Notes under the pieces: generated by a model
The model's database searches: none
Seen by the model: the letters and a program-made list of their open reading frames with translations, nothing else
What the model was told of the DNA's origin: nothing
Position numbers and translations under genes: made by a program
From: Candidatus Woesearchaeota archaeon CG10_big_fil_rev_8_21_14_0_10_33_12
Lineage (GTDB): Archaea; Nanobdellota; Nanobdellia; Woesearchaeales; CG1-02-33-12
Length of the DNA stretch: 39,365 bases
Assembly: GCA_002762865.1 (NCBI GenBank)
Contig: PCYE01000008.1
Location: 1 to 39,365 of the forward strand
Direction of reading: 5' to 3'
Part shown: positions 6,450 to 30,304 of the stretch, piece by piece
Layout: every line of letters starts with the position of its first letter
How positions within the stretch are numbered: the first letter of the stretch is position 1

Positions 6450-8408
6450 TTATTTTTCAGGTTTAAAGCCCGGTGGTGTTGGGGGCATTAAGTCAATTTT
6501 ATTACTTTTCTTAAACAATTTAAAAAATGATGGTTTATGCTCCATAATTGGTTTTGATGGAGGAATGCTTAGTTTTGGGGGAAGTGGTAGCTTCTTCTCC
6601 TCTACAAATTTTGTTGGCATTGATAGATGTGAAGGATGAAAATTTTGAGGTTTAAAGGGTGGAGGTTTAGGAATTGGTTTAGGCAGCTTCCCTCCCTCTA
6701 CAAATTTTATAGTTTTTTGGTGAGGAAAGGGAGGAAGAGTTCTAGGCCTAACAATCTTGGGCATTTCATATCTCTGGATGAGTGTTGGTTTTTTAATCTG
6801 TGGTTGTGGAATAGTTTCCCCTTGTATTTGTAAAACTGGTTTTTTTATCTTAGCAGTTTCTTCTTGCTTAAGTTGCTTTATTTTTATTGATGGGACTTCA
6901 ATCTCTGTTTTTATTGATGAGACTTCAGTCTCTTCCCTATCTAAGGGCTTTTTTATTTTAGGAACCTCAAATATATTTTTTTCGAGTCCAAGCTCAGAGG
7001 ATATATCCCTATAAAAAGTCAAAATTCTCGTTCTAAGCTGTGTCTTCCTTTCCAAAAAGCCACTTGGCATTGCATTGTATAGGCTTATAATCTTTTTGTA
7101 AAGCTCGCTAGCCTGGTTAAATTTTTTATTCTTCACATAGCTGAATGCATCTCCAAGCATCTCATCTATTTTATGATATTTTATATTAAAGTCTTCAGAA
7201 GATTTTTTATCCAGCTCTGCGGATAGTTTTTCATATAAGTTTAATAGAATTTTATGCAGCTCTGTCTTCTGTTTTAAAAATCCTTCTGGAAGGCTATAGA
7301 AAACATCTTTAATTTTATTGTATGTGTCTTTAGCAGACTCCAAATCTTTTTTTGCTATGGATTGATTTATCAGTTTTGATAATTCTTCTATTTTTATTGT
7401 TTTATTTTCCATATCATCACTTGTTATTTTTTTATATCCTAATAGTATCTCCTCATACAAAGGGATAATTTTAGCTTGAAGCTCTGCTCTTTCCTGCAGA
7501 AATCCCTCTGATAAGCTGTTATAAATCTTTCTTATCTTTTCATATAGCTTTATGGCAAGAGGCATATTTCTCTCATTAATAGACTGTCTTGTCTCCTCAA
7601 GCAGATTAATTATTTCAGTTTTTTTTGTTGACATATCTTTTATATCCTGCTCTTCCCGAATTGTAATAAGGGGCCCATAGAGTTCTATTATTTTGTTCTG
7701 TAAAACAACTTTTTGCTCAATAAATCCATCTGGCAGGTTATCATACATTCGCCTTATTTGTCCATAAGTTTTTATTCCACCCAATAAATCCTTATTTTTT
7801 ATTTTCTGCTCAAGTAATTTTAGTAATTTTTTCAGATATTGAGATTTCTTCTCCATTTCTTTTATTGATAATTTACTAAGATTGACTCCCAGATCCTTAC
7901 TTAACTTAGTAAGGTGGGTATTGAGCTCATTCTTTTTTTCAAGAAATTCAGATGGCAAACCATCATATTTGCCCTTTATTAAGGCATATATTTCCTTTGC
8001 TTTATCAAACTTTTTTTTCTTTATGTAGCTGTATGCCTCACCAAGCAGCAGGTGTATTTCAGTTAGCTCCTCTTTTTTAAGGGTTCTCTTAGCTTGTTCA
8101 GCAGGCTTTTTCTTAAGAGTTTCTTCCTCAATGGTTTCTTCTTTTGGTTTTTTCTTTTTCTGCTCAAAAACTGTCAGGAGGGGTGTTGTAAAATTATATT
8201 TTATAGAAATAATTTTCTCTTCTTCCAGAAAGTTGGCCCATGCTTCTATTGTTTCTTGTGATACATTTAGTTCCTTTGCAGAATCCTCAAATGATATTTC
8301 TCCTTTCTGATTAACCAGCTTCACTAGTTTGTCAGCACTTGTCTTTACTACATCTGCTTCTTTCTCAAACCTCTCTAAAAGTTCTTCATCATCCAATTCA
8401 TATGCCAT
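6450..8408 (-). CDS. HTH-domain protein with five ~74-aa helical repeats and proline-rich tail (pilus-operon associated)
   Basis: 652 aa; N-terminal KGEISFEDSAKELNVSQETIEAWANFLEEEKII (wHTH-like); five copies of a Y..[ML]P.GF[LI]..[KR]..L module; Pro/Lys-rich C-terminus. Confidence 0.8.
   Translation of the reverse strand: MAYELDDEELLERFEKEADVVKTSADKLVKLVNQKGEISFEDSAKELNVSQETIEAWANFLEEEKIISIKYNFTTPLLTVFEQKKKKPKEETIEEETLKKKPAEQAKRTLKKEELTEIHLLLGEAYSYIKKKKFDKAKEIYALIKGKYDGLPSEFLEKKNELNTHLTKLSKDLGVNLSKLSIKEMEKKSQYLKKLLKLLEQKIKNKDLLGGIKTYGQIRRMYDNLPDGFIEQKVVLQNKIIELYGPLITIREEQDIKDMSTKKTEIINLLEETRQSINERNMPLAIKLYEKIRKIYNSLSEGFLQERAELQAKIIPLYEEILLGYKKITSDDMENKTIKIEELSKLINQSIAKKDLESAKDTYNKIKDVFYSLPEGFLKQKTELHKILLNLYEKLSAELDKKSSEDFNIKYHKIDEMLGDAFSYVKNKKFNQASELYKKIISLYNAMPSGFLERKTQLRTRILTFYRDISSELGLEKNIFEVPKIKKPLDREETEVSSIKTEIEVPSIKIKQLKQEETAKIKKPVLQIQGETIPQPQIKKPTLIQRYEMPKIVRPRTLPPFPHQKTIKFVEGGKLPKPIPKPPPFKPQNFHPSHLSMPTKFVEEKKLPLPPKLSIPPSKPIMEHKPSFFKLFKKSNKIDLMPPTPPGFKPEK
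7000..8085 (-). repeat. Five protein-level tandem repeats, period ~222 bp (~74 aa)
   Basis: Motif cores LPSEFLEKKNEL, LPDGFIEQKVVL, LSEGFLQERAEL, LPEGFLKQKTEL, MPSGFLERKTQL at plus coordinates ~7950, 7727, 7502, 7283, 7061. Confidence 0.8.
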
Positions 8409-11724: not shown

Positions 11725-11753
11725 AATTTTAAAATTGCTATAAAAACAAAAGT

Positions 11754-11761
11754 TTTATATA
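11754..11761 (+). promoter_or_regulatory. Putative TATA box for surface cassette A
   Basis: tttatata ~32 nt upstream of ATG 11793. Confidence 0.45.
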
Positions 11762-11792
11762 TCTAACAAGAGAAGAAACTGGTAGAGGGAAT

Positions 11793-13907
11793 ATGTTGAA
11801 AAAGAGAGGCCAGATAAGTGTATTTATAATAGTGGGGATTATTATCCTTCTTGCTTCTGGTTTAACTTTTTATATTATAGCAAGAGTTAGCAGGATAGAT
11901 AATGTTGAACCAATAATTGAAGATATACCAACACAGCTGTATCCAATAAAATTATTTATTGAGCAGTGCATTGACAAGACAGCAACTGATGCAATAACCC
12001 TTATTGGGGAATCAGGCGGCTACACAGATATTTCTGAATTTGGAATTACGCACACAGCTGATCCAACTATCTCACAGGCAGTTGAGTTCTCGCCAGAAAG
12101 TTCTATGAATGTTGCATACTGGTGGTATCTTAAAAGCAGTAATGACTGCTCAGGAAACTGCGAGTTTTCATCAGAGATGCCTGACCTAAAGAGTGAATAC
12201 AAGAAAGGCGAGGAAAGAGCATTAATGGATTATTCTATTGAAGCACAGATTGACAGGTATGTTAATAACAACTTAGATGAATGCCTTAATGATTTTAAGG
12301 ATTTTGAAGAGCAGGGCTTTTCAGTTAGAGAACTTGGAAAAATAACCACAACAACAACTATAAGGGATGATGATATTCTTGTTTCTGTTAATTACCCAAT
12401 GGAAATAACCAAAGAAAAAACCAAATCAACGGTTTCTAACTTCTTCACAACAATTCCTGTAAATCTTAAAAATATTTATGAGCTTGCATTTATGATAACA
12501 AGCGATGAGATAAACTATAAGTTTTTGGAGCGAAACACCCTTAATCTGATAGCTGGTTTCTCAGAGATAGACAGTGGAAAATTGCCTCCAATGGCTGGCT
12601 CTAAATTTGAGTCAAGTTCTCCTGTGTATTGGACAAAGCCGGATGTAAAAACAAAACTAGAAGGGATGCTTATGAGTTATGTTCCCCTTCTTCAGGTTGA
12701 AGATACACTAAAATACCAAGAGAGAATTTTTGATGATAGCATAAAGCAGAGAATTTACAGCCAGATGTTAATTCCATCATATGGAAATTCCTACAAAAAG
12801 CTTGGAGTTGATTTTATTTATTTGGGTTGGTGGCCTATCTACTTTGACATTAATACAAAATCAGGAATAATAATGCCTGAATCTGCATCAACAAATCTTT
12901 TGCCATTGCCAATAACAATTCAGAGATACAATTTCCTGTATGATATATCATATCCAGTTATTATAACCATAAACAGCCCAGAGGCATTTCATAGTAAGGG
13001 TTATTCATTTAGGTTTGCGCTTGAAGCCAATATAAGAAACAATGAGGCTATTAATTCATCATTTGTATCTTTAGAAGGAAAATCTGATGAAACATCAATG
13101 TTCTGTGACATTAACAAAAGAAACAGCGGCAACATAAAAATAACAACAGCAGATGCCCAGACAAATAATGCCTTAGATGGTGTTATGGTTTATTATAGCT
13201 GCGGCACTGAGTCATGTTTTATTGGAGAAACAAGTAATCAGGCTGTTCTGGAAACAAAATTCCCTGTCTGTGCAGGAGGCATAATAACATTTTCAAAGCC
13301 AGATTTCCTTGGCTATTCAGAATTTTTAAACACAGAGCTTGATAAAGATGTTGTTCTGCCAGTTAAAAAACTAGAGCCCTTTGTTTATAAAAACATTGAG
13401 ATAAAGAAGAAAAGAATGATAAAAGTGGATGGTAAATGGACATTTGACAACACGCCTTTAAGGTTATCAACTAATGAGCAGGCAATCCTAACACTTGAAA
13501 GAATTGGCAGAAATGGTGAGGAAGAGTTTTCAGCAGCAGCACAATATACTGGCGGCCAAGATGAGCCCTCTGAGTTAAGGCTTGTTCCTGGAGAATATAA
13601 AGTTAATATTCAAATAATTTTAAATGAAAAGGTTGTGATACCTAAAGAAGTAAAAATTATCCCACCAACTATTCTGCCAGAGATTGATTTGAATCCTTTT
13701 CCTGCTGGAGGGATTATATTTGATGAAACTATCCCATGGAACACAGGTAGTATAATAAATTATGATAATATAGAATTTTATTCACTTTATATAGACCTCC
13801 CTGGAGTCCCAGAGAATGAAAGAAAGCATGATGATATGGATGAAATGAGCAAAATAGAAGAATATTCAAAAAATTACAGGGCAAGTTTAGAGCCAATCTT
13901 AAGATGA
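11793..13907 (+). CDS. Large surface protein with class III-like signal (MLKKRG-QISVFIIVGIIILL), cassette A
   Basis: 704 aa; paralogous to 20377-22284 along its length (APIK/YPIK..., YWWYLK/YWYLN, TTVPV/TTIPV...); ATGA overlap with next ORF. Confidence 0.75.
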   Translation: MLKKRGQISVFIIVGIIILLASGLTFYIIARVSRIDNVEPIIEDIPTQLYPIKLFIEQCIDKTATDAITLIGESGGYTDISEFGITHTADPTISQAVEFSPESSMNVAYWWYLKSSNDCSGNCEFSSEMPDLKSEYKKGEERALMDYSIEAQIDRYVNNNLDECLNDFKDFEEQGFSVRELGKITTTTTIRDDDILVSVNYPMEITKEKTKSTVSNFFTTIPVNLKNIYELAFMITSDEINYKFLERNTLNLIAGFSEIDSGKLPPMAGSKFESSSPVYWTKPDVKTKLEGMLMSYVPLLQVEDTLKYQERIFDDSIKQRIYSQMLIPSYGNSYKKLGVDFIYLGWWPIYFDINTKSGIIMPESASTNLLPLPITIQRYNFLYDISYPVIITINSPEAFHSKGYSFRFALEANIRNNEAINSSFVSLEGKSDETSMFCDINKRNSGNIKITTADAQTNNALDGVMVYYSCGTESCFIGETSNQAVLETKFPVCAGGIITFSKPDFLGYSEFLNTELDKDVVLPVKKLEPFVYKNIEIKKKRMIKVDGKWTFDNTPLRLSTNEQAILTLERIGRNGEEEFSAAAQYTGGQDEPSELRLVPGEYKVNIQIILNEKVVIPKEVKIIPPTILPEIDLNPFPAGGIIFDETIPWNTGSIINYDNIEFYSLYIDLPGVPENERKHDDMDEMSKIEEYSKNYRASLEPILR

Positions 13908-16900
13908 ACAAAAAAATAACTGCATTTTTTATGATATGCATGATAATTGCACTTCCAGTTTATAGTGCAAGTGTTTTTGCAAGCATAAACAATGTTGGTA
14001 TTTTTGGTGAGGATGGATTAAAAGGATATAAAAAAGGATATGATTTTACATATGTTAATGCAACTGTTGCTATTGATGGAGATGATGATATAACTCCTGA
14101 TAAGCAGGTCTTTTTCAATAATATCCCCTTTAATACATGCAGGGGATTGCCTAATGAATATTTTATGTGCTTCTTAGGCATTAAAAAAGAGACCTTAGAG
14201 TCAAAAACCTATCTGTTTAATATAACATTGAAAGATGATTCTGAAAATGTTGTTGGTATGTATGCAAATACATTTGTTGTTGATAATAAAGGACCAACTA
14301 TTGAATCATTTACTATAAATCCAAAAGTAACAAGAAAAGGGAATTTAACTGTAAAATATAGTGTAAAAGATTATGCTTATGGCACAAGCATTGGCTCTGG
14401 ATTAAGCAAGATAATTATCTGCAAGAACTATATATCAAATGTGGTTAAGGAAATAACAATTAATGATTCCTCATACATTGATTCAAGAGAATTGCAGTTT
14501 AAAACATCTGACTTTGTTTCCTCAACAGGCTCTGCTAATGTTTGTATAGCTGCTTATGATAAGTTAAATCAGGTTTCAGAATTTAGGTGTGAAAAACTTA
14601 CTGTTGATGAAAATGTTCCAGAAATAAAAGAAGACTCGTTTAAGATAGTTGATTATAATGGTAATGAGATAAAATATCTTTCTGGCAAACAAATGAAAGT
14701 GATTATCAGCATTGAAGTTGAAGATGAATCATTAGATAAGGTTGTTGCTGACTTATCAGAGCTGAATAAAGATGAGTCAAGCTATAAAAATAAGGTGGCT
14801 AGCTGTGCCAGCAAAAATGGAGTCTCATTATGCACGTGGTCTAATATACTGATAAAAATTAGTAGTCCGGGCAAAGTTAATATTAAGGTTAATGCTGCAG
14901 ACTATATTGGAAATACTGCAGAAGAGAGTGTAGAAATTAATGTTGATGAAACTAAACCAAAGATTGATAAGAATTCATTTAAACTAACAGATATTAATGG
15001 CAATGAAATAAATTATCTCACTAAAGAGCCATTAACAGCAGTTATTAGCATTGAAGTTGAAGATGAATCATTAGATAAGGTTGTTGCTGACTTATCAGAG
15101 CTGAATAAAGATGAGCCAAGCTATAAAAACAAGGTGGCTAGCTGTGTCAGCAAAAATGGGGTTTCACTGTGCACATGGTCTGGTGTAGTAATAAAACTTA
15201 ATAATTCAGGAAAGGTTAATATTAAGGTTAATGCTGCAGACTATATTGGAAATACTGCAGAAGAAAGTGTAAGTTATGATTTTAAGGTTGATAATATTGC
15301 TCCGATAGTTAAGTCTTTGAAGAATTCAAATGGGGAGTATAACAACATAAATTATATTGGAAAAAACAACGAGCTTATTGCTGAGATTGAAGAAAAAGAT
15401 TCTGGTTTTAATCTAAAAAAAGTTTGGCTTCTGGTTGAGGATGAAAAAATTCAGGCAGACAGATGTGATAAAAATAGTGGAAACTGGAAATGTTACTGGA
15501 AAAATGTGAAATTCAATGCAGCAGATGGTTCCTCAATAACAATATTTATCAGCCCTAACTCAGAGGATGATGCTGGAAATAATATTGATGTTAATAAGGG
15601 TATAATTTCAGAAAAGTTTAATCTTGACATTAAAGCTCCTGCTCTAATAAGCAATATAGAAATTAAAAATCTGGACATCAATCGGTCATACATCCAGGAG
15701 GATATATTACTTGGGGATAAATTACACATAAAAGCAATCCTTAGCGAGAGAACATCTGTAACAGCTAGTGCAGATTTCTCAGGCATTGGTTTGGGTTCTG
15801 ATGTAAGTACCCAATGTACAAAGAATGAAAGCAACTGGGTTTGCGAATGGACAACAAATGAGATTGCTCCAAAATCAACAAATGTTGAATTAAAATTTAA
15901 ATTTACAGACCTTGTTGGCAATGAAGCTGAGAAAAAAGTCAACATAAAAGTTTTAGGGGTAAGTGATGAGGAAAATCCTAATCACTGGAAAATTAGCAGT
16001 ATTGAAAAAATGCCTCTGGCAATTGACAGGCAGACAACTGAATTAATAAACCAAAAGACCTATTATCACATTAAGTTAAAGCCAGCAAGTGTTTATGAAA
16101 ATCCAACTATTCTTGCTCTTGATCTGCAGTGTGATGGAGATATGACTTATATTGAGAATTCTGAATTGATTAATAAAAATTTTAATGATCCTTATATTAT
16201 CCTGACATTAAAGCAGGAAAGCATGCCTAATGTGTCTTTATCATTTAACTGCAATCTATTTATCATATCAAGGGTGGGAGATTTGATTATACAGAATACA
16301 GAAGAAGAGCCCGTTGACCTGACAATAGACTTCTACAATATGCCCCTTGGAGAGCTAAGCCAGAATGTTAAGGACAAAATAAAAAATGCTCAGGACAGCT
16401 GGCTTGTAAAGATGGAATGGTTAGATTTTGCAGAGAAAATATTACACCTTGCAGAACAAATATGTAGATTAATTCAAACACTTGGCAAAATAAATGAAGC
16501 AATCAATGACCTTGAGCTATTAGTTTCCCCATTTGAATCAACTGGTTTGGTAGGAATTATTAAGACTACTGCTGACTGGACTGATAGGATGTATACGGAT
16601 TATATTAAAAAGTTAGAAAAATACTGCAAATATGTCTCATGTGAAACAACAATTTGGGGAGGGTGGTATGATGAGTTCTCAAGCAAGAATACACCTGAAA
16701 TTTTTAAGGAAATGAGGTTTAGTGGAGGCTTTTGGCCTTCAAGCCCAAAAGAGAGTATTGTATTAAGCCTTGCTACTGGATGCTTGCCCGGGATAATATA
16801 TAATCTGCAAAAAAGGAGGCAAGTAGAATGTTATTATGTGTTATGCCTCAAGAAAGCAGCTGATGAAGGGATTCCATTGTCTGTCTGCGATGAGCAAAAA

Positions 16901-17254
16901 TCATATCTAGAATGTGTGTTTATATTTGGCGAGATATTCCAGATAATACCTTTTGCAGGATTTTTCAAGGGGTTAGCAAGTGAATTTGAAACAATAGTAT
17001 CAGACCCATTAGGGCTTATCTTTGGAGGGCTTAACTTTTATTGCGAGCTTCAGCCAACAATGGCTGGCCATGCTATTTGTGTTAGTGCTCATTTAGTGCC
17101 AACCTTAGCATCTATTGTGCAAGACATAATAGGATTTGCTGATACAGACAACTGGTGGATTAGCGGTGATGTATGCGAAGAAGCTCTAAAACCAATGCCT
17201 GAAACAACAGAAGAAGGCATAAATGAAACAGATGGAGAAGAACAAACAATTTAA
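13904..17254 (+). CDS. Giant secreted surface protein with repeated Ig-like/Cys-containing domains
   Basis: 1116 aa; signal peptide MNKKITAFFMICMIIALPVYSASVFA; repeated C..xxxxx..[LW].C.W domains; Ig-like DYIGNTAEESV motifs. Confidence 0.8.
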   Translation: MNKKITAFFMICMIIALPVYSASVFASINNVGIFGEDGLKGYKKGYDFTYVNATVAIDGDDDITPDKQVFFNNIPFNTCRGLPNEYFMCFLGIKKETLESKTYLFNITLKDDSENVVGMYANTFVVDNKGPTIESFTINPKVTRKGNLTVKYSVKDYAYGTSIGSGLSKIIICKNYISNVVKEITINDSSYIDSRELQFKTSDFVSSTGSANVCIAAYDKLNQVSEFRCEKLTVDENVPEIKEDSFKIVDYNGNEIKYLSGKQMKVIISIEVEDESLDKVVADLSELNKDESSYKNKVASCASKNGVSLCTWSNILIKISSPGKVNIKVNAADYIGNTAEESVEINVDETKPKIDKNSFKLTDINGNEINYLTKEPLTAVISIEVEDESLDKVVADLSELNKDEPSYKNKVASCVSKNGVSLCTWSGVVIKLNNSGKVNIKVNAADYIGNTAEESVSYDFKVDNIAPIVKSLKNSNGEYNNINYIGKNNELIAEIEEKDSGFNLKKVWLLVEDEKIQADRCDKNSGNWKCYWKNVKFNAADGSSITIFISPNSEDDAGNNIDVNKGIISEKFNLDIKAPALISNIEIKNLDINRSYIQEDILLGDKLHIKAILSERTSVTASADFSGIGLGSDVSTQCTKNESNWVCEWTTNEIAPKSTNVELKFKFTDLVGNEAEKKVNIKVLGVSDEENPNHWKISSIEKMPLAIDRQTTELINQKTYYHIKLKPASVYENPTILALDLQCDGDMTYIENSELINKNFNDPYIILTLKQESMPNVSLSFNCNLFIISRVGDLIIQNTEEEPVDLTIDFYNMPLGELSQNVKDKIKNAQDSWLVKMEWLDFAEKILHLAEQICRLIQTLGKINEAINDLELLVSPFESTGLVGIIKTTADWTDRMYTDYIKKLEKYCKYVSCETTIWGGWYDEFSSKNTPEIFKEMRFSGGFWPSSPKESIVLSLATGCLPGIIYNLQKRRQVECYYVLCLKKAADEGIPLSVCDEQKSYLECVFIFGEIFQIIPFAGFFKGLASEFETIVSDPLGLIFGGLNFYCELQPTMAGHAICVSAHLVPTLASIVQDIIGFADTDNWWISGDVCEEALKPMPETTEEGINETDGEEQTI
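14604..15270 (+). repeat. Two-copy in-frame tandem repeat, 339-bp period, with near-perfect blocks
   Basis: agcattgaagttgaagatgaatcattagataaggttgttgctgacttatcagagctgaataaagatgag is identical at 14708 and 15047; gttaatattaaggttaatgctgcagactatattggaaatactgcagaaga also recurs. Confidence 0.95.
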
Positions 17255-17305
17255 GATTAAATAAATAAAGAAGAAATAATAAAAAACAAAAATAAACAAA
17301 TAAAG

Positions 17306-19507
17306 ATGAAGAAAGGAAAAACAATCTCAATGGTTTTAACAATTGTAATGCTTGTCTTGTTAGCTGGAAGTATGGTTAAAATATCTAAAGCAGGTATTAT
17401 TGGAATAGTAAGTTATAATCGTGCCAAAGGAGAATTAACATATGGAAATGAAGTAGTAGTTGACTTCTCAAACGAACAATATGATGCTTCCGAATATATA
17501 CTAACCACCTTAATAAATCCTGAAGGATTTAAAATGGAAGATAATAGCCTTGTGTTTACAGCGGATAACTACAATAAAGATAAGGATAATATGCTTAGTT
17601 TTTATGAAGGTAAAATAACTTTTAATGAAGATGGTGAAATAATTTCACAAACATACACAGAATATTATAATAACGCAGAAAAGGAACAAGTAAGAATAAC
17701 TGAAATAGACAAGGCAGAAAATATTAAAGTAAGGATTGAAACTCTTGATGATGACGGAAAGAAAGACACGTTTGATTTGAGTGAAGAACAAATGAAATTA
17801 TATGAGTTTTTGCCAACAGGAATTCCACTAAATGAGTATATTAAAGCCGAAGAGGAAGAGACAAAAAAATCAAACACTGCAAAAGATGCAACAGGAAACA
17901 TTGAAGTTGAGGTAGAAACAAAAGATGTAAAAGAACCTTCTGTCAGCACAGATGTGGAAAGTGCTAAAAAACCACATTTAGTAGTTCCTTCTGATGAAAT
18001 AAATGATGCAGTTGTAAAAGAAATAGGGAGTGTGAAAATATTTAATAATCAAATAAGTTTTGAAGGCAATACACTTACATATACTACAAAAGATGCCAAT
18101 GGAAATCTAATTGATGTTGCAATTGTTTATAATAAAGAGGGTATCACAGAATCAACAACTAAAAGTTATGAAGGAAATATAATTTACTTTAGAGAAGGTA
18201 ATGAAAATAATAAAGAACTAACAATCAATTATAACTTAGGAATTAAAACTATTGATTATGAAGAAGGAAATTATATTGCAACAATCAGTGATGGAAGTAA
18301 AGGAAAATTAGAAAGCGGAAATAAGTTTATTTATGACGCTGATGAAGGGGTTACACGCACATTAGAGGCATTAAATGGCGGGGGCACTTTAAAGTTTTAT
18401 AACAAAAATCCAAAAGATGGAGAAGAAGAGATAGGAACAATAACTATTACAAGAGGCAGTGAAAAACTTACGTTTTATGGAACTTTTGATGGTAAAGAAG
18501 TAAAGGAAAAAGGTAAAAAAGTTCTAGCTATAGATGAGAATGGCAACATTTTAACAGATTTTGACAAAAATGGTGAAGCTCAAACAACTTATTATGCTCA
18601 TAGTGTTTTTAGTGCATATGTTTTTGGAAAAAAACAAAGTGATAAATCAGAAAAAATATACTGGCCAGGGTATGAACCATTTGCATTCAGGACTAGTGAT
18701 GGAGAGGTAATACTAATTCAAAGACAGGAAGACGGCAGTTATAAATATTATGCTTATGAAAACAAACAACTGAAAGAATTAAAAGAAGGAGATGCAAATT
18801 TCAAAGAAGTAAATGCAATGGTCAGAAAAACAAAAATTGGACCTGCATTTTATGCGGCTGCCAGTGCTGCACGTGGAGGAAGAGCACTTTCAAACCTTCT
18901 TAACAGCTGGCTTGACATTGACTTCATAAACAAGTGGAGAAAGAAAAGTGATGAGTTCTTCTCGCAGACTGTTATTGGCAGGATAATCAGCGGAAAGTGG
19001 GAAGAAAGTTTATGCCATTCAAAGATTGAAAAAATACCAGAAAATATTGCTGTTGTAAATGTAAACAATGTTATGGGATTTGCAGCTCATGTTGAGGGTG
19101 AGAGAAGCGCTGCAATAACAACAAACAATCAAACCTTATATTTCTATAAGATAACCTTTGGAGTTAATCCAAGTAATGTAGGTGATGTTACATTTAATCT
19201 TTTAATAGACGATCATGCTGTTGACTTTGACAATGATGGAATGGCTGACAAAATAAAGCTTAAAAGTGATGAAACTTACAACGGAACAGGAAAAAATGCA
19301 ATTGTAAGGTACAAACCAAAGATATATAAAAAGGTGTGCCTCAAATTCTACAATACAGAGAACTTAAACGCAGAATTCAGGAATTCATTAAAAGACAATA
19401 AACTATGCAACAAGATAAATGAGGTTGATTTAAGTTCTGTTGAAATTTCTGAACCAGCAAGCTCAACAGCTGTCTCCAGCACATCAACTGGCCTACCCGG
19501 ATGGTAA
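17306..19507 (+). CDS. Secreted surface protein; Lys/Glu/Asn-rich N-terminal half and distinct Cys/Ig-like C-terminal half
   Basis: 733 aa; signal MKKGKTISMVLTIVMLVLLAGSMVKISKA; C-terminal half from ~18840 starts ARGGRALSNLLNSWLDIDFINKWRKKSDEFF... Confidence 0.7.
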   Translation: MKKGKTISMVLTIVMLVLLAGSMVKISKAGIIGIVSYNRAKGELTYGNEVVVDFSNEQYDASEYILTTLINPEGFKMEDNSLVFTADNYNKDKDNMLSFYEGKITFNEDGEIISQTYTEYYNNAEKEQVRITEIDKAENIKVRIETLDDDGKKDTFDLSEEQMKLYEFLPTGIPLNEYIKAEEEETKKSNTAKDATGNIEVEVETKDVKEPSVSTDVESAKKPHLVVPSDEINDAVVKEIGSVKIFNNQISFEGNTLTYTTKDANGNLIDVAIVYNKEGITESTTKSYEGNIIYFREGNENNKELTINYNLGIKTIDYEEGNYIATISDGSKGKLESGNKFIYDADEGVTRTLEALNGGGTLKFYNKNPKDGEEEIGTITITRGSEKLTFYGTFDGKEVKEKGKKVLAIDENGNILTDFDKNGEAQTTYYAHSVFSAYVFGKKQSDKSEKIYWPGYEPFAFRTSDGEVILIQRQEDGSYKYYAYENKQLKELKEGDANFKEVNAMVRKTKIGPAFYAAASAARGGRALSNLLNSWLDIDFINKWRKKSDEFFSQTVIGRIISGKWEESLCHSKIEKIPENIAVVNVNNVMGFAAHVEGERSAAITTNNQTLYFYKITFGVNPSNVGDVTFNLLIDDHAVDFDNDGMADKIKLKSDETYNGTGKNAIVRYKPKIYKKVCLKFYNTENLNAEFRNSLKDNKLCNKINEVDLSSVEISEPASSTAVSSTSTGLPGW

Positions 19508-19508
19508 A

Positions 19509-20321
19509 ATGACATACTTAAATAATCAAATAAACTTATTTAAAAAAAGTTTTAAACTTGACAAAAAGAGATTTTTTTCAGTGATAATTTTTGATTTTCT
19601 TTTTATTTTGGTTTCATATATTGCACTCTTTTTATGTGGTATGTGGTTAAACAGTTCTGCTTCAAAAATAAGCGGATTGGATTTAACAACCCTTACTGAA
19701 AATGCTATAAATGAACTTGCTGCACTAAAAAGCTTCTATTATGGGGCAATAATATGCTTAATACTGCTGATTATATTTTTGTTTTTTGCCTGGTCTTTTT
19801 TTCAGGGTTTTATATGGAACACAATACTAAAAAAGAAATTCAATTTAGATTATTTCAAGAAATTCCTGTTATTAAATTTAGCTTGTATTCCATTATCAAT
19901 AATCCCCTTTTTTATAGCATTAATTTGTCTTAGACTATTTAATTCAATAATCTTGTTTTTTTCAACTGCTGGGCTTAACACAAGCCTTGTTATGTTTGTA
20001 TTATTAATTTTATCTGCTTTTATCTTTCTGCCAATCATGCTTTACCTTATTAATTTTATATCAATCTTATATTTTTATTTTACAAAGAAAAGCAAAATAT
20101 TGGATTCTTTTAAAGACACATTCAAAATTGCAGTTAAAAAAATCCATTTGCTATATATCCCTTGCCTGGTAATGAGCCTTGCCTTTGTTTTTTTGGCTGT
20201 AATCACAATACCTCTTAATATTCTACCATTGTGGCTTATATCATTAGTTTCATTTGTTTTGCTTGTTATTTATGCAGCATGGGCAAGGTTTTACATTGTA
20301 GCTGTTATAGCAAAATTATAG
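19509..20321 (+). CDS. Multi-pass membrane protein, cassette A
   Basis: ORF track starts 19440 but ATG 19509 (MTYLNNQINLFKKSFKLDKKRFF) follows the upstream stop; several TM segments; paralog of 26258-27226. Confidence 0.75.
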   Translation: MTYLNNQINLFKKSFKLDKKRFFSVIIFDFLFILVSYIALFLCGMWLNSSASKISGLDLTTLTENAINELAALKSFYYGAIICLILLIIFLFFAWSFFQGFIWNTILKKKFNLDYFKKFLLLNLACIPLSIIPFFIALICLRLFNSIILFFSTAGLNTSLVMFVLLILSAFIFLPIMLYLINFISILYFYFTKKSKILDSFKDTFKIAVKKIHLLYIPCLVMSLAFVFLAVITIPLNILPLWLISLVSFVLLVIYAAWARFYIVAVIAKL

Positions 20322-20337
20322 AGAATTCACCACAAGA

Positions 20338-20347
20338 TTTAAATATA
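20338..20347 (+). promoter_or_regulatory. Putative TATA box for surface cassette B
   Basis: tttaaatata ~30 nt upstream of ATG 20377; SD-like gaggt before the start. Confidence 0.45.
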
Positions 20348-20376
20348 CTTTATTATAGAGTATTCTTAGAGGTATT

Positions 20377-22284
20377 ATGAAAAAAAGAGGCCAGGTAACA
20401 GTATTTGTAATAGTTGGGATTCTTATTCTTCTTGCCCTTTTGCTTTTTTTTTATCTAAGGGCAAAAACAACTATTTTCACTCCAGAGATTGTTGTGCCGC
20501 AGGAGGTTGCCCCTATAAAAAGATATGTTGAAAGCTGTGTGCAGGATATTGGCGAAAAAGCTGTGATAAAGCTTGGAATGCAGTCTGGATATGTTGAAAT
20601 ACCTGAAGACATAGCTATGAATCCAGAAGCATATATTGCTGTTGGTGGACCATTAAAACTGCCATACTGGTATCTCAATGGAGTTGATACCTCACCAACA
20701 TTATCTGATATACAATCTCAGATATCAGACTATGTTTCAAAAAACCTTAAATCCTGCCTAAGAAACTTCTCTGACTTTGATGAGTTTATCATAGAAGAAA
20801 AGGGCGAAATCAAAACAACAACACTAATAGCAGAAGAAGAAGTTATTATAACAATAGACTATCAATTAGTTATTAAGAACAAAAAAGGTGATAAGATAAC
20901 AACATTATCTAAATATACAACATCTGTTCCAGTAAGGCTTAAGAAAATCTATAGGCTTGCAAAGGGAATAATGGGAGCAGAAAACAAGGATATGTTTCTT
21001 GAAAAAACAACAATTGACCTTATGGCTCTTGACCCTGAAATCCCTTTTACAGACATGGTTTTCTCGTGCAATGGGCTTGAGTGGAGCAAGGCAGATATTG
21101 AGCAGTCTGTTAAGGAGTTGTTATATTATAATCTGCCGAAGATAAGGATTGACAAAACAGATTATATTCCTTTTTTATATGATCCTGTGATATACAAGAA
21201 ATTTCAAAAACTAGATGTTACCAAAGATCCACTACCTAAAGACATACCAGAGGATATTTATGAGTACAATCACTTTTTCTGGGCACCTGTTAGTGAAAAT
21301 TTTGAGGATATGAAAGCAGGAATAAGGTATATGCAGGACTGGGGAATCCAGCTTGAAGCAAGACCAAGCGACGGAGATGTTATGAAATCCAACATGGTTG
21401 AAGGAGCTCCAAAATATCTCAATATGTTCTGTATAAATGTATATCATTTCACATATGATGTAATTTATCCTGTTGAAATAGCAATAAGGGATGAAAAATC
21501 ATTTAATAACAAAGGATATGTTTTCAGGTTTGCTTTTCCTGTCTTGATTAACCATAACCAGGGTGATAGGTCTGACTTTGGAATAACAAAACTTGCAAGC
21601 TACCAGGATACAGGATTCTGCGATGAGCTAACAGAAGAGGAGTATGTTATCAATGCCAAAGACTCAAGAACAAAACAAGACTTAAATAATGTGAGCATTT
21701 CATTTAACTGCATAAAATACCAATGTGATTTAGGCTTTATAAAATCAGAGGCAAACAGGTACAGACTAAAAACAAATCTGCCATCAGCATGTGTTAATGG
21801 GGTTATAATAGCAGAGAAAGATGGCTATTTAAGAGCAGAACAGCAGGTTATTGATGAAGAAAATGATATTCTAATTATGATGGATCCACTTAAGAGCTTT
21901 GATTTTAGTGTTATGAAAGTTGACAGCACAGGATATAAAGAAAGATTGACTATAGATGAAAAAGCAGCAATATACATCAAGTCATTAAATAAAAGCCATG
22001 ATATCTTTGCAACATATCCTGCTGAAGAAGGAATGGAAGAAATAGAGCTGATTGAAGATGATGCCAGCTATTATCTTGAGATTTTCCTTATGAATGGTGA
22101 TGTGCTTACAGGCGGCTTTAAGGCAGACTGGGATTTAAGTTATAGTGATATTGTTGGCAAAGATAAAATAATATTTTATGTTTATGACAAAGGTGTTGCT
22201 AAAACAGATGAGGATAAGCTTGCTATGGTAAAGTTCTTAAATCAGAACAAAAATAATAATGAATTAATGCCAAATTTTGAATGA
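20377..22284 (+). CDS. Large surface protein with class III-like signal (MKKRG-QVTVFVIVGILILL), cassette B
   Basis: 635 aa; paralog of 11793-13907; ATGA overlap with the next ORF. Confidence 0.75.
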   Translation: MKKRGQVTVFVIVGILILLALLLFFYLRAKTTIFTPEIVVPQEVAPIKRYVESCVQDIGEKAVIKLGMQSGYVEIPEDIAMNPEAYIAVGGPLKLPYWYLNGVDTSPTLSDIQSQISDYVSKNLKSCLRNFSDFDEFIIEEKGEIKTTTLIAEEEVIITIDYQLVIKNKKGDKITTLSKYTTSVPVRLKKIYRLAKGIMGAENKDMFLEKTTIDLMALDPEIPFTDMVFSCNGLEWSKADIEQSVKELLYYNLPKIRIDKTDYIPFLYDPVIYKKFQKLDVTKDPLPKDIPEDIYEYNHFFWAPVSENFEDMKAGIRYMQDWGIQLEARPSDGDVMKSNMVEGAPKYLNMFCINVYHFTYDVIYPVEIAIRDEKSFNNKGYVFRFAFPVLINHNQGDRSDFGITKLASYQDTGFCDELTEEEYVINAKDSRTKQDLNNVSISFNCIKYQCDLGFIKSEANRYRLKTNLPSACVNGVIIAEKDGYLRAEQQVIDEENDILIMMDPLKSFDFSVMKVDSTGYKERLTIDEKAAIYIKSLNKSHDIFATYPAEEGMEEIELIEDDASYYLEIFLMNGDVLTGGFKADWDLSYSDIVGKDKIIFYVYDKGVAKTDEDKLAMVKFLNQNKNNNELMPNFE

Positions 22285-25200
22285 TGATGATAATGAAAGA
22301 CATAAAACTAAAGCTAACAGCAATCAGCTGCATATTGCTTATATTGTTTATGCCTGTTTATAGTGCAACTGTTTTTGCACAGGATGAAGAACAGACTATT
22401 GAGGATAAGACTCCTCCTTCTGTGAATATAGAAAAACCAGAAGAAAAAGTTACTGAGCCATTTATTGATATTAAAGGAACAACCAATGAGCCAGTAGTAA
22501 TTGAGGTTAGCCTTAATTCTAATTATTATGGCACAGCAAACTCAAATGAAGACAATACAATTTCAATAGGCATAACTTTAGCAGAAGGAGAGAATAAAAT
22601 AAAAATTAATTCAACAGATGCTGGCGGAAATTCTGTTATAAATGAGTTTAATGTTTTTTGTGATTCAGAGCAGCCCCAAATACTTTACAATAATATATAT
22701 GAGCTAAACCCTGCATACACAGCAGAACAGACAGTTAAAGGCCAAGTCAATAAAGCAGATATAAATATAGATATTTTTGTTAATGAAAAAAAGAAATATT
22801 CTGGAAAATCTGATTCTGAAGGTAATTTTGAGATTGACATAAATCTTGATAAGAGCATTAAAATAAGTACAATAGACAAAACCATAACTGTTGGAACACA
22901 GGAAGGAAATGCATGGCAAAACAAGATAAAAATAGTTGCAACAGATGATTATGGCAGAGAAGCAACTATTGAGGAGGTTATTACATATACGCTGTGCGGC
23001 TATGGCTCTGACTGGGATGTAGGTGTTGGCGAGAGAACTCCGGATGTTATAATACCAGAACATTTAATACAGGGAATAGCTCAATTCAGCTTTCCTGTTA
23101 ATCTAACTTATAGGGGTAATGCTGATTCAAGCACAGTTGTCTTGACAAGCGAGCCTCAGCTCACAAACTATGACTTAAGCATGTCATCACAAGAAAAATT
23201 CCAAGACGAACTTTTTCCTGGCTCTGCAACAAGCTACTGGAATGATGATTACACTCAAGGTTATTTTATTGTAAACCTTAATAGCTGGACAAAAAGCAAA
23301 GAGGAACTAAATAACCTTAGTTTTATAAAAATACCACTAAGGCTTGATATATACTATGAATATGAGGATAGGAACGGTGACATTGTTGAAAATACGCAAA
23401 GAAACTGCTGGGATATTAAGATAATGGTTGACAAGGAGATTCCACTTGACAAGATTCCAAAAGAATTGCTGAATGCTACTGTAAATTTATTAAATTCAAC
23501 TATAAACCTTATTGATGCAATAAAAAAACCAATTGACACAATTAAAACATATACTTTTGTTGGGTGTGCTTTATCATGGGGCTGGCACTTGATCCAGTCA
23601 ATTTCTGTAGAGTTTTCGTGTGTTGGTGTAAAACAGGAGGCAATCCAGGCATTGATAAATGGTGATGACACATGTCCAAACCCACCATCTAAACAAGATG
23701 AAAGTGGCAAGCTTATTGAATTTGATTGTGATTCCTGTCTTCAGGCTTTGAAATCATTAAGAGAAGCTGAAAAGGCTAGAAACTGGCTTTGTGATAGGAT
23801 ATTTTGCCCTGCTGTCCCTTCTCTTGAATATCACACTGAAACATATAATGACAGCATAACAAAGGCTAATCTATGTGAAATGTTTGACCAAGATTCAAAG
23901 GAATGCGAGGAAGAATACAAGCGAGCCTGGGATTCTGCATTTATGATGATTGATGAATGGAAAAAGGCTAATGCAAAAGAAGGAGAAGGAGAGGAAAGCT
24001 TTTTTGATAAAATCTCAGAGGGTCTTGCCTTCTGCGAAAAAGCAAAAGAGCAGGAAGTAGATGCTGTAACAATTGGCTCTGGAAGCAAGCAAACTGTTTA
24101 TTTAGTTTATCCTGATGGAAGTGTTTGCATTGGCCAGATAACAGAGATTGAAGCAGGAACTCAAGAAGGCTCTAAGGTGTATGTTGGAAAAGAAGGCGAA
24201 AAGGATATTTATTATAGCTGTGATGGTGGAAAGTTAAACATAAATGAAGAAAAAGGAGTTTATACTGATGTTGATGGCAAAGAGGTTAAAATACCCCCTG
24301 ATGTCCAATCAAAGAGAGGTATTGAAGGAAATGATAATTATATACTTGACCCTACATCAGATATTATAAGGTCTGTGCAGGCAGTTTGTTTGCCTGCTGT
24401 CTCTGGCTATCTTAACCTGTGGAAGCAGATTCTTGAAGCTGTAAAGCAGTGCTTTGAAACAATAATGATAACCGGCGAGGGAAGTGCTGGCGTCTGCAAG
24501 GCAGTGCTTACAAATTATGTTTGTGATATGATTTATGATATCATAAGATGCACAGGAGAATCATTTTCATTTGGAGCAGGCGAGGAAATTTCAGGAGGCA
24601 TTACAGGATTAATGCAAAAGATATCAACTGCCGGAACAAATGTTTTGAGTTCTGTTGAAGGGAGATATGGACAGACAGGAATGTACAAAACAATGTTTGT
24701 TGATAGAAAACTTATACACTCTATGTGCTTGTTTGCATTTACAGGTGACTGGGGAGAGTTTGACCTTGATACGTTACTCACTGCAGAGATTGGAATGCCT
24801 ACATTAGGAAGCGAGGGCTTCTTATATCCAACAACAAGAAGATTTATGGGCTCTAACCCACTTGATTATGGAAGAACAACCTATATCTATCATATTGGCG
24901 CTGGCTTGATTGCAGGAGCAGACCTTAATTATAAGGTTTATCTGCAATGCTCAAATGACAATTCATGCCCAGAGGGAAGATGCGACTGCTTTTACAGGGG
25001 CAAGGAAGAAATATATAATATTCCCTCAGGTAGCGGCAGTTTAAGTGCAGGTGACCTTTATACTGATGAGTTTTATATTGATATTCCTGATTCCCTTGTA
25101 AGGTATGACAAGGCAGTTATTGAATGGGACTGGACAGACAACACTGGCCAATCACAGACAACAACAAAAGTCAGTGAAATAAAAGATATAGGTGAAAAAG

Positions 25201-26258
25201 CTCCTGCTGACTGCAAGCTTGACTCAAAAAGCGGAGAGTTCAGGTGCAAGTATATTATAGGTCAAGATGGTGAAGCAAGACTAATTGATGTTGAAGGAGA
25301 GGATAAGTATAATATTAATGACAAAACAAGCTTTGATGTAAAACTGGAGATTATTCCTCCTGAATCTGGTTATGATATACCTAAATACTTAATATGGAAA
25401 ATAAAAGACAGCAAAAACATAATGGTTGATAGCGGACAGATAAGAGTTTTAACCAAGAAAGGAACCATATATGAGAAAAATGTTGCAGAATTTGATATAA
25501 GTGAATACTTCACAGGAAAAACCGAAGATAAAATAGAAAGAGAGCAATACAATGGCAATAAAATGCTTGAAGTAGATGACAAACTTATAGGAACTCCTTA
25601 TGGAAGTGCATCTTTCCTTGTAATATTCACAGATGTAAATATTGAAGAAAAGGTTTATGTTTATGAGATTTATTCTTTAACTGAAGGATTGGAAAAAGAT
25701 AGTATGATTTATAGATCTGACGAATATAGTCCAAACCTGAGAACAATAAAATATGAGTTAAAAAATATACAATTTAAATTAAATAAAAATCCAGAAGAAG
25801 GAGATGCAGCAATAATAAATGTTGAGAAAGGAAGAGATAGCCATGAATGTGATGAGGATGGGGAAGAAAATTGGAAAGTAATATTTGAACTTCTGCATTC
25901 AAAGAAAAAAGACGCTGATTTAGAGGGAAATAATCCGCAGGACTATGAATGTTGCGGTTCAAAAATAGATAGTGAAGAAGTTGAAATAACAATTGACTGT
26001 GGAGTTGAGCAAAAAGACGAAGAAAATAATTGTGATAAAAACGAGCTGATTAATGAAGAATGTAAATGTGGAAATGAAGTTGAAACATGTGGTAATGTGG
26101 GGGCAGACCAATGGAATATCTGTTGTGAAATTGAATCAAATGTTTACTGTAGCAAATTAATTGACGAGTCTGAAGTTGAATTAGACAATACTAAAATATC
26201 TAACGAAAAAACAATAATAGATCCAGAATATCTTAATGAATTGTGTGAGCTAAGCTGA
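22281..26258 (+). CDS. Giant secreted Cys-rich surface protein, cassette B
   Basis: 1325 aa; signal ...LTAISCILLILFMPVYSATVFA; Ig-like DKTPPSVNIEKPEEKVTEPFIDIKGTT...; many Cys; start may be the downstream ATG at 22293. Confidence 0.78.
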   Translation: MMMIMKDIKLKLTAISCILLILFMPVYSATVFAQDEEQTIEDKTPPSVNIEKPEEKVTEPFIDIKGTTNEPVVIEVSLNSNYYGTANSNEDNTISIGITLAEGENKIKINSTDAGGNSVINEFNVFCDSEQPQILYNNIYELNPAYTAEQTVKGQVNKADINIDIFVNEKKKYSGKSDSEGNFEIDINLDKSIKISTIDKTITVGTQEGNAWQNKIKIVATDDYGREATIEEVITYTLCGYGSDWDVGVGERTPDVIIPEHLIQGIAQFSFPVNLTYRGNADSSTVVLTSEPQLTNYDLSMSSQEKFQDELFPGSATSYWNDDYTQGYFIVNLNSWTKSKEELNNLSFIKIPLRLDIYYEYEDRNGDIVENTQRNCWDIKIMVDKEIPLDKIPKELLNATVNLLNSTINLIDAIKKPIDTIKTYTFVGCALSWGWHLIQSISVEFSCVGVKQEAIQALINGDDTCPNPPSKQDESGKLIEFDCDSCLQALKSLREAEKARNWLCDRIFCPAVPSLEYHTETYNDSITKANLCEMFDQDSKECEEEYKRAWDSAFMMIDEWKKANAKEGEGEESFFDKISEGLAFCEKAKEQEVDAVTIGSGSKQTVYLVYPDGSVCIGQITEIEAGTQEGSKVYVGKEGEKDIYYSCDGGKLNINEEKGVYTDVDGKEVKIPPDVQSKRGIEGNDNYILDPTSDIIRSVQAVCLPAVSGYLNLWKQILEAVKQCFETIMITGEGSAGVCKAVLTNYVCDMIYDIIRCTGESFSFGAGEEISGGITGLMQKISTAGTNVLSSVEGRYGQTGMYKTMFVDRKLIHSMCLFAFTGDWGEFDLDTLLTAEIGMPTLGSEGFLYPTTRRFMGSNPLDYGRTTYIYHIGAGLIAGADLNYKVYLQCSNDNSCPEGRCDCFYRGKEEIYNIPSGSGSLSAGDLYTDEFYIDIPDSLVRYDKAVIEWDWTDNTGQSQTTTKVSEIKDIGEKAPADCKLDSKSGEFRCKYIIGQDGEARLIDVEGEDKYNINDKTSFDVKLEIIPPESGYDIPKYLIWKIKDSKNIMVDSGQIRVLTKKGTIYEKNVAEFDISEYFTGKTEDKIEREQYNGNKMLEVDDKLIGTPYGSASFLVIFTDVNIEEKVYVYEIYSLTEGLEKDSMIYRSDEYSPNLRTIKYELKNIQFKLNKNPEEGDAAIINVEKGRDSHECDEDGEENWKVIFELLHSKKKDADLEGNNPQDYECCGSKIDSEEVEITIDCGVEQKDEENNCDKNELINEECKCGNEVETCGNVGADQWNICCEIESNVYCSKLIDESEVELDNTKISNEKTIIDPEYLNELCELS

Positions 26259-27226
26259 TGGAACTTAAAAAAAATATTCTAATAAACGGCTTTGTTGATT
26301 CCTTTAAAGTTTTAAAGACTAGGGTTAACACAAGGTTTATTATATTTATATTATCAGTTTTATTTGCTTTTATATTTCTGCCAGTAATGATATATCTTAT
26401 TGCTGTTATATTTATTTTATATTTTTATTTCACAAAGAAAAATAAAATATTGAAAGAATTTTTATATTCTGTTATTTTGTTTTTTAGTGATCTTTTTTTC
26501 TTGTTTGTTTTTTTTATTATTTATAATCTCTTTTTAGGAAACATTATGAATAAAGTAATTTCATTGCTCACACTTACTGGAAAGGCATTGCAGGGCCTCA
26601 CACAAACTGATATTACCCTAAACATTTTGTCTAACCAGCAGCAGATGAACTCTCTTATTGTTAACATTGGCCTTTGGATTTTTGGCCTCATTGCTTTATC
26701 CTATGCGCTGTATTGCATCTTTCAAGGGCTAGTCTGGTTTATTGCGCACAAAATACTCAAAGAAAAAACAAACTTCAAGGAGTATATAAAAAGATTCTTT
26801 GCAGTAAATATTTTATGGTGTGTTTCCTTTGTTATAATTGCCTATTTCTATGTCAGGGCAGTCATTTACACACAGGTCCTGAGAAGTCCATCAAATATAC
26901 AAACAGTTAGCATATTTTCAGTTATTTTATTAATTATTCTTAGCTATTTTGCGCTTATATCATATGTGTTAATCAAAAAATACGGTTTTGTTGATTCAAT
27001 AAAAAAATCATTTTCATTGGCAATTAAGGAATTTGCAACAATAGCCCCAATGTATGTCTTGCTTGTTTTAGGCTTTGCTGTTATAGACGTTCTGCTCAGG
27101 CTGTTGTTTATGGTAAATGTAACCCTTATGGTTATTATTGGAATAATATTAATGTTCCCTTTTATAGCCTATGCAAGGCTTGTAATTATTTCTGTTATTA
27201 AAAATTTAACCAAAAAAAATAATTGA
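26258..27226 (+). CDS. Multi-pass membrane protein, cassette B
   Basis: 322 aa; many TM segments; paralog of 19509-20321 with an extra N-terminal TM segment; 1-nt overlap with upstream stop. Confidence 0.75.
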   Translation: MELKKNILINGFVDSFKVLKTRVNTRFIIFILSVLFAFIFLPVMIYLIAVIFILYFYFTKKNKILKEFLYSVILFFSDLFFLFVFFIIYNLFLGNIMNKVISLLTLTGKALQGLTQTDITLNILSNQQQMNSLIVNIGLWIFGLIALSYALYCIFQGLVWFIAHKILKEKTNFKEYIKRFFAVNILWCVSFVIIAYFYVRAVIYTQVLRSPSNIQTVSIFSVILLIILSYFALISYVLIKKYGFVDSIKKSFSLAIKEFATIAPMYVLLVLGFAVIDVLLRLLFMVNVTLMVIIGIILMFPFIAYARLVIISVIKNLTKKNN

Positions 27227-29279: not shown

Positions 29280-29301
29280 TGATTTAACATAAATGTTACA
29301 T

Positions 29302-29850
29302 ATGGAACAAAAAAGTTACAAATTAGAGATTATAAGGGTTTTATTAAAAAAGAATAGCCATATTCGGGAGATAGCTAAAAAACTTAATATAAACCATATG
29401 ATGGTAGTTAGGAAGATAAAAGAGCTTTCAAAAGAGAATGTTGTTGATTTTACGCAAGAAGGGAAAAATCAAACTTATTTTCTGAAAAAAACAGCTGAAA
29501 CACAGGCATATGTTTTTATAGCTGAACAATACATTTTGATTCAAGCAATAATCAAATATCCTGGGTTAAGAGGAATTATTGAGAAAATCCAAAGAGATAA
29601 AAGAATAAAATTAGCTGTTCTTTTTGGCTCATATGCAAAAGGGCTTGCAGGAAAAGACAGTGATATTGATATTTTTATTGAAACTAAAAATACAAACCTG
29701 AAAAAGGAACTTGCTCTTATTGACTCAAAATTAAGCATTAAAATAGGAATGTATAACAAGGAAACTAACCTGATTAAGGAAATAGATAAAGATCATGTTA
29801 TAATAAAAGGGATTGAATATTATTATGAAAAAAATCAGTTTTTTGGCTAA
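29302..29850 (+). CDS. HTH-nucleotidyltransferase (MNT-like) fusion protein
   Basis: N-terminal HTH (HIREIAKKLNINHMMVVRKIKELSKENVVDF) then LAVLFGSYAKGLAGKDSDIDIFI, matching GSx10DxD; alternate start at 29293. Confidence 0.85.
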   Translation: MEQKSYKLEIIRVLLKKNSHIREIAKKLNINHMMVVRKIKELSKENVVDFTQEGKNQTYFLKKTAETQAYVFIAEQYILIQAIIKYPGLRGIIEKIQRDKRIKLAVLFGSYAKGLAGKDSDIDIFIETKNTNLKKELALIDSKLSIKIGMYNKETNLIKEIDKDHVIIKGIEYYYEKNQFFG

Positions 29851-30304
29851 ACTCTTTGATGAAGGAAAGCTACAACTTGTGAATCCAAGCGAAGAAATTA
29901 AGGATTCATATATCAAGAAATCAGAAAGCAATCTTATTTCTGCAAAAATTCTCCTGGAAAACAATAAGTTAGAAGAATCTGTTTCTTTAGTTTATTATAG
30001 CATGTATCATATTCTAACTGCATTGCTCTTTAAAGTTGGAATAAAGTGTGAAAATCATTCTGCTTCAATTATTTTGCTTAAAGAATTGTTTTCTATTGAT
30101 AATTCAGGTATATTTTTTGCAAAAGAAGAAAGAGTAGATAAACAGTATTATACTGACTTCAATATAACTAAGCAGGAAATTCTTGAAGCAATCAGAATAG
30201 CAGAAAATTTCAATAAAAGATTGCTGGATTTTATTTCCAAATTAGATAATCAAAAAATAAAAGAATACAGAGAAAAATTTAAAATATTAAATTGGAAAAA
30301 ATAA
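29825..30304 (+). CDS. HEPN-domain protein
   Basis: KDSYIKKSESNLISAKILLENNKLEESVSLVYYSMYHILTALLFKVGIKCENHSAS...VDKQYYTDFNITKQEILEAIRIAENFNKRL; overlaps the nucleotidyltransferase ORF by 26 bp. Confidence 0.75.
   Translation: MKKISFLAKLFDEGKLQLVNPSEEIKDSYIKKSESNLISAKILLENNKLEESVSLVYYSMYHILTALLFKVGIKCENHSASIILLKELFSIDNSGIFFAKEERVDKQYYTDFNITKQEILEAIRIAENFNKRLLDFISKLDNQKIKEYREKFKILNWKK

What the first reader, a model, noticed from the sequence alone, without database searches (positions are those of the whole stretch)
11793..27226. Tandem-duplicated giant surface-protein cassette
Gene order repeats: A = class III-signal protein (704 aa), giant secreted protein (1116 aa), 733-aa protein, multi-TM protein (11793-20321); B = class III-signal protein (635 aa), giant secreted protein (1325 aa), multi-TM protein (20377-27226). 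The first genes are clear paralogs; both giant proteins start at an ATGA overlap and share the signal-peptide end PVYSA[ST]VFA; the multi-TM genes are paralogs. Both copies have a TATA-like element ~30 nt upstream of the first ATG. This points to an ancient divergent duplication of a three-gene module, possibly a secreted surface complex with its own membrane partner, plausibly in host contact.
Basis: partly seen in the sequence, partly recalled or inferred. Interest (0 to 1): 0.72.

Follow-up and report, generated by a model that had tools for sequence, protein, structure and literature searches.

The report
Duplicated surface-protein module of Woesearchaeota
A three-gene module, present once in related orders of tiny archaea, encodes a membrane-anchored outer protein, a giant secreted partner and a membrane protein; it was duplicated in the ancestor of this order, and it is a widespread, unnamed surface system whose job is still unknown.

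Summary
In this Woesearchaeota genome two paralogous units lie in tandem: A (11793-20321) and B (20377-27226). The class III-signal proteins A1 and B1 are paralogs (27%, E=1e-48). The giants A2 and B2 share a four-cysteine helical domain (the "CLPG" domain) and neighbouring beta domains, found only by profile comparison. The six-TM proteins A4 and B4 are paralogs. Sister orders carry ONE copy of the triplet (class III, giant, usually six-TM). Within this order A1 and B1 form separate, strongly supported clades, so the duplication is as old as the order. Class III protein and giant are present or absent together: 17/17 against 0/18 genomes in this order, 12/12 against 0/11 in sister orders. The family occurs in 204 of 236 sampled genomes of the phylum and has no Pfam family. 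It needs neither the type IV pilus platform nor an adjacent assembly ATPase, though every genome checked keeps a prepilin peptidase. Most likely A1/B1 are prepilin-peptidase-processed membrane anchors that hold the giants at the cell surface. "Host contact" is unproven. Two cultivated ectosymbionts (identified by remembered genome length), one with a described attachment organelle, lack the module.

The parts
11753..11762 (+). TATA-like promoter element of unit A, 30 nt before the A1 ATG
   Evidence: TTTTATATAT, nearly invariant in 4 species inside an otherwise diverged intergenic stretch
11793..13907 (+). A1: class III-signal (prepilin-like) membrane-anchored ectodomain protein, 704 aa
   Evidence: KKRG|QISVF motif; paralog of B1, E=1e-48; A1 clade of 25, support 1.0; motif in 64/70 family members, 0/57 giants
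13904..17254 (+). A2: giant secreted protein, 1116 aa: signal peptide, Ig-like repeats, 'W..P' beta domain, CLPG cysteine domain (about residues 955-1040)
   Evidence: ATGA overlap with A1 conserved
17306..19507 (+). A3: secreted protein, 733 aa, specific to unit A; C-terminal part conserved, middle expands by internal repeats
   Evidence: A3 homologs accompany A1-A2 in many families of the order; none recognised as part of unit B or of the sister-order triplets
19509..20321 (+). A4: six-TM membrane protein, 270 aa, end of unit A
   Evidence: start set by orthologs; separate TM clade from B4; an A4-type gene directly precedes B1 in 21 loci
20338..20347 (+). TATA-like promoter element of unit B, 30 nt before the B1 ATG
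   Evidence: TTTAAATATA invariant in 6 species, but the aligned stretch as a whole is 92% conserved
20377..22284 (+). B1: class III-signal membrane-anchored ectodomain protein, 635 aa
   Evidence: family in 204/236 genomes of the phylum; AlphaFold2 mean pLDDT 86: N-terminal helix 4-30, low-confidence 31-37, alpha/beta domain, C-terminal beta domains
22281..26258 (+). B2: giant secreted protein, 1325 aa (likely start 22293); Ig-like domain, beta domain, CDRxxCP and CLPG cysteine domains
   Evidence: present and absent together with B1
26258..27226 (+). B4: six-TM membrane protein, 322 aa, with an insertion of about 46 aa copied from A4
   Evidence: groups with the post-giant TM proteins of sister orders; 134-bp tract 81% identical to A4

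Best explanation
This is an ancient tandem duplication of a three-gene envelope module (class III-anchored ectodomain protein, giant cysteine-rich secreted protein, six-TM protein). SHOWN: the homology of all three gene pairs, the single-copy triplet in sister orders, separate A and B clades across the order, linkage, and joint presence/absence of class III protein and giant. INFERRED MECHANISM: the class III protein enters the membrane by its N-terminal helix and is cleaved after K-R-G/A by the prepilin peptidase, exposing a Q-start helix. Its roughly 600-residue ectodomain is displayed outside. The giant is exported by Sec, is stabilised by disulphides, and docks on that ectodomain. The six-TM protein is the membrane partner that helps export or assembly. 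The two units make two parallel, specialised surface complexes; unit A gained a third secreted part (A3). The most likely role is adhesion or cell-surface scaffolding, in the manner of a non-filamentous minor-pilin/adhesin tip complex.
For: Paralogy. Single-copy triplets in 11/11 sister-order loci, class III directly followed by a 1657-2410 aa giant, TM protein recognised in 6. Tree: A1 (25, support 1.0), B1 (34, 0.998), sister (11, 0.982). TM tree, B4 with sister-order TM, A4 separate. Sister giants homologous to B2 (189 columns, prob 98.4, E=4e-15) and A2 (prob about 90). Co-occurrence: Fisher p=2e-10 and 7e-7. Class III motif 64/70 against 8/84 for other N-terminal-TM proteins. Prepilin peptidase in 18/18 genomes, including those without a Tad-type platform. 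Short class III proteins elsewhere are directly followed by a secreted protein (9/9), though not of the CLPG kind.
Against: No interaction, cleavage or localisation was measured. The class III motif is a sequence pattern. Co-occurrence samples are partly family-clustered, so the Fisher p-values overstate independence. In some families B4 or A4 is missing, so the TM protein may be dispensable. The three-way class III tree is not reliably rooted (N-terminal-domain root supports 0.34-0.44), so duplication before the orders split followed by loss in the sister orders is not excluded.
Confidence: 0.6

Rival explanations
1. A1/B1 are true minor pilins of a type IV filament and the giants are PilY1-like tip adhesins, assembled by the divergent ATPase (about 760 aa) and 8-TM platform (about 730 aa) found in these genomes.
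For: Class III motif with G/A at -1 and Q at +1; prepilin peptidase in 18/18; divergent ATPase in all 36 genomes checked, though only weakly in one, G167, beside the platform protein in the loci read; archaeal T4P loci with large PilY-like proteins are known (PMC4858521).
Against: Not in the ATPase loci. Ten module-bearing genomes lack the Tad-type ATPase and any T2SSF match over the family cut-off. The divergent ATPase is equally present in module-less genomes. Ectodomain of about 600 aa on a low-confidence linker rather than a continuous pilin helix. No pilin, DUF2341 or PilY Pfam match.
Confidence: 0.22
2. The module builds an S-layer-like or wall scaffold rather than an adhesin.
For: Phylum-wide (204/236), retained in genomes near 0.5 Mb (G256); Ig-like and beta domains, many conserved cysteines.
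Against: Lost cleanly in several lineages, unlike an essential wall; no S-layer family match. Abundance is unknown.
Confidence: 0.15
3. It is the protein machinery of the Nanobdellota host-attachment organelle, whose proteins are unknown (PMC11420986, PMC11104419).
For: Large phylum-specific envelope module of unknown function; the authors of PMC11420986 suggest the organelle may be ubiquitous in the phylum.
Against: The 668,961-bp genome (length recalled as that of Nanobdella aerobiophila, which has the organelle) and the 605,887-bp genome (recalled as Nanopusillus acidilobi) have neither the class III protein nor the CLPG giant.
Confidence: 0.03

Closest known systems
Type IV pili / type IV filaments of archaea (class III-signal pilins, prepilin peptidase, FlaI/TadA-type ATPase)
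   Same: N-terminal class III signal and hydrophobic helix; prepilin peptidase in every genome checked
   Different: Ectodomain about 600 aa, not in an ATPase/platform locus, kept where the Tad-type platform is lost, no pilin family match
Minor pilin plus PilY1-type tip adhesin (bacterial T4aP; archaeal DUF2341 proteins in clade 1 T4P loci, PMC4858521)
   Same: Pilin-like anchor gene next to a giant secreted protein
   Different: The giant has no PilY1 or DUF2341 match; its hallmark is an unnamed four-cysteine CLPG domain; a six-TM gene is added
Predicted arCOG01314 secretion complex with Ig-like S-layer proteins (PMC5898192) and the DPANN T4P 'dark matter' islands (PMC6393860)
   Same: Archaeal cluster of secreted Ig-like and membrane proteins predicted from neighbourhood
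   Different: No MoxR ATPase or DUF4350 neighbour in the window; the class III plus CLPG-giant plus TM triplet did not appear in the passages of either paper that were read; their arCOG supplements were not searched

Membership tests
Type IV pilin (class III) | Class III signal: K/R then G/A/S, cleavage, Q-start hydrophobic helix | tested here: met
   64/70 family members; giants 0/57; other N-terminal-TM proteins 8/84. Sequence pattern only
Type IV pilin (class III) | Prepilin peptidase in the genome | tested here: met
   PF01478 over cut-off in 18/18 genomes
Type IV pilin (class III) | Dependence on a T4F ATPase and platform | tested here: inconclusive
   Tad-type ATPase/T2SSF missing in ten module-bearing genomes; a divergent ATPase is found whether or not the module is present
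Type IV pilin (class III) | Match to a curated pilin family, compact pilin-size ectodomain | tested here: not met
   No pilin match in Pfam or NCBIfam; 600-700 aa; Foldseek finds only partial beta-sandwich and transthyretin-like matches
Type IV pilin (class III) | Polymerises into a filament | not testable with these tools
   needs microscopy or biochemistry
PilY1 / DUF2341 tip adhesin | PilY1 beta-propeller or DUF2341 domain in the giant | tested here: not met
   Only weak Ig-like or Glucodextran_B matches below cut-off
Nanobdellota attachment organelle | Present in organisms that build the organelle | tested here: not met
arCOG01314 putative secretion complex | MoxR-type ATPase and DUF4350 protein in the neighbourhood | tested here: not met
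   None among the window's genes scanned with Pfam; related loci were not Pfam-scanned

The most novel reading that the evidence does not exclude
A phylum-specific surface machine of Nanobdellota: a prepilin-peptidase-processed anchor that is not a filament subunit presents a giant disulphide-rich partner through its own six-TM protein, and was duplicated and specialised in the ancestor of this order.
Probability: 0.35. Interest if true: 0.75.

Novelty: new variant of a known kind. Interest (0 to 1): 0.55.

Why it matters
The module is in most sampled genomes of a phylum of tiny, mostly uncultured archaea thought to live on other cells, yet none of its proteins has a family name. It gives a defined gene set (anchor, giant, TM protein) with single-copy and duplicated lineages, co-loss, and probable natural knock-outs among cultivated species, so surface biology of this group becomes testable. 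It also suggests that prepilin peptidase is kept for a purpose other than canonical pili in genomes that lost the Tad-type pilus machinery.

Tried and rejected
Plain BLASTP of the giants found only the signal peptide; profiles were needed. Attachment-organelle idea: attractive from the papers, dropped when the two genomes of matching length proved empty. Divergent T4F ATPase as the discriminating partner: found in all 36 genomes, so uninformative. The adjacent T4P operon (310-8408) as functional partner: not required elsewhere. PDB sequence search: nothing significant. Foldseek of B2: generic beta-sandwiches, ApaG/Fn3-like, model confidence only 71.6. A first alignment of sister sequences held a mistyped row and was remade. 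A script that ended with an IQ-TREE run timed out; FastTree was used instead.

Full report
WHAT IS THERE. The window is contig 49 of a 1.05-Mb archaeal genome; its nearest named relatives are Woesearchaeota/Nanoarchaeota MAGs, one labelled Methanosarcinales. The reported genes exist at the stated places. I name them A1 (11793-13907), A2 (13904-17254), A3 (17306-19507), A4 (19509-20321), B1 (20377-22284), B2 (22281-26258), B4 (26258-27226). Orthologs place the A4 start at ATG 19509.

PARALOGY OF A AND B. A1 and B1 align over nearly all of B1 at 27% (E=1e-48). A4 and B4 match at E=1e-13. A2 and B2 give only the signal peptide by BLASTP. With family profiles they match over the Ig and 'W..P' beta region (prob 94.6%, E=7e-8) and over a four-cysteine helical domain (prob 90.8%, E=1.2e-6); reversed-profile controls give below 1%. 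The domain reads C-L-P/T/S-G-I ... C-L ... C-D ... C; I call it CLPG.

SINGLE-COPY TRIPLETS. In other orders of the class, each module-bearing genome examined carries one long class III protein (615-715 aa). In 11/11 loci read it is followed directly by a giant of 1657-2410 aa, and in six by a recognisable six-TM protein. Those giants match B2 over 189 columns (prob 98.4, E=4e-15) and A2 over the CLPG domain (prob about 90).

AGE OF THE DUPLICATION. The class III tree splits cleanly into A1 (25 sequences, support 1.0), B1 (34, 0.998) and sister-order (11, 0.982) clades. In the TM tree B4 groups with the sister-order post-giant TM proteins, and A4 is a separate group. The trees of both small families and the giant profiles therefore show the duplication, which is at least as old as the order. 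B looks closer to the single-copy form, but the root is not resolved. Gene order across the order: A1 directly followed by A2 in about 16 of 25 loci, B1 by B2 in 33 of 34, TM directly before B1 in 21 (counted). In some genomes the two units lie apart (G012).

CO-OCCURRENCE. In this order the B2 giant is found in 17/17 B1-bearing genomes and, at comparable strength, in 0/18 genomes chosen for lacking a strong long class III match; two of the latter give weak CLPG hits. G046, which has A1 but no recognised B1, also lacks B2. In sister orders the giant is in 12/12 against 0/11. Fisher p is 2e-10 and 7e-7, an overstatement because relatives are not independent. The class III family is in 204/236 sampled genomes of the phylum.

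ANCHOR. 64 of 70 family members carry K/R, then G/A/S, then (62/64) Q, before a hydrophobic helix; most of the others have truncated or misplaced starts. None of 57 giants and 8 of 84 other N-terminal-TM proteins do. All 18 genomes tested have a prepilin peptidase. AlphaFold2 of B1 (mean pLDDT 86) shows helix 4-30, a low-confidence stretch 31-37, an alpha/beta domain and C-terminal beta domains; Foldseek gives only partial matches to sortase-pilin-type beta-sandwiches and transthyretin-like domains. One of 40 members hits CarboxypepD_reg.

RELATION TO TYPE IV PILI. The window holds a T4P operon on the other strand (310-8408), but ten module-bearing genomes (G014, G016, G019, G026, G031, G033, G038, G039, G041, G046) lack its ATPase and any T2SSF match over the cut-off. 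A divergent ATPase (about 760 aa) with an 8-TM platform is read in ten loci and the ATPase is detected in all 36 genomes tested, with or without the module, only weakly in G167. It could serve the class III proteins, but nothing links it specifically.

HOST CONTACT. The proteins of the Nanobdellota attachment organelle are unknown (PMC11420986, PMC11104419). Two single-contig genomes of 668,961 and 605,887 bp, lengths that I recall for Nanobdella aerobiophila and Nanopusillus acidilobi, have neither gene. So the module is probably not that organelle. The giants diverge faster within the genus (63-79%) than A1/B1 (80-85%) and flanking enzymes (85-96%), which fits surface exposure but proves nothing about hosts.

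PROMOTERS AND JUNCTIONS. TATA-like boxes end 30 nt before both ATGs and are conserved; the A1/A2 ATGA overlap is conserved, the B1/B2 one is not.

VERDICT. A real, ancient, duplicated three-gene surface module of a known general style (class III anchor next to a large secreted protein) but with no named family; function inferred, not shown.

Noticed in passing
window 26258-26460: B4 of this genome alone carries a 134-bp tract 81% identical to A4 (46 extra residues), absent from four close relatives: sequence exchange between the two units.
   Followed up: yes
L081:7766-15406 (own genome contig 32) and L082-L090: A divergent type IV filament locus: ATPase of about 760 aa, 8-TM platform of about 730 aa, usually two or three 5-TM proteins of about 190 aa and coiled-coil-like proteins. 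The ATPase was detected in all 36 genomes checked (weakly in G167), including ones without Tad-type pili.
   Followed up: partly
L102, L103, L104, L105, L073, L074: Short class III proteins (about 250-400 aa, sharing the A1/B1 N-terminal domain) are each directly followed by a secreted protein (9/9), often in two nearby pairs; the partners lack the CLPG domain.
   Followed up: partly
window 310-8408: Archaeal type IV pilus operon on the minus strand: T2SSE ATPase, two T2SSF platforms, five pilin-like genes.
   Followed up: partly
window 29293-30304: Overlapping nucleotidyltransferase (MNT) and HEPN genes, a toxin-antitoxin-like pair kept in some relatives.
   Followed up: no
window 17306-19507; L039:5514-9131: A3 varies in length by internal repeats (733 aa here, 1205 aa in a relative) with a conserved C-terminal part.
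   Followed up: partly
G205:C13:35581-37440: A class III (B1-like) gene with one in-frame TGA.
   Followed up: no
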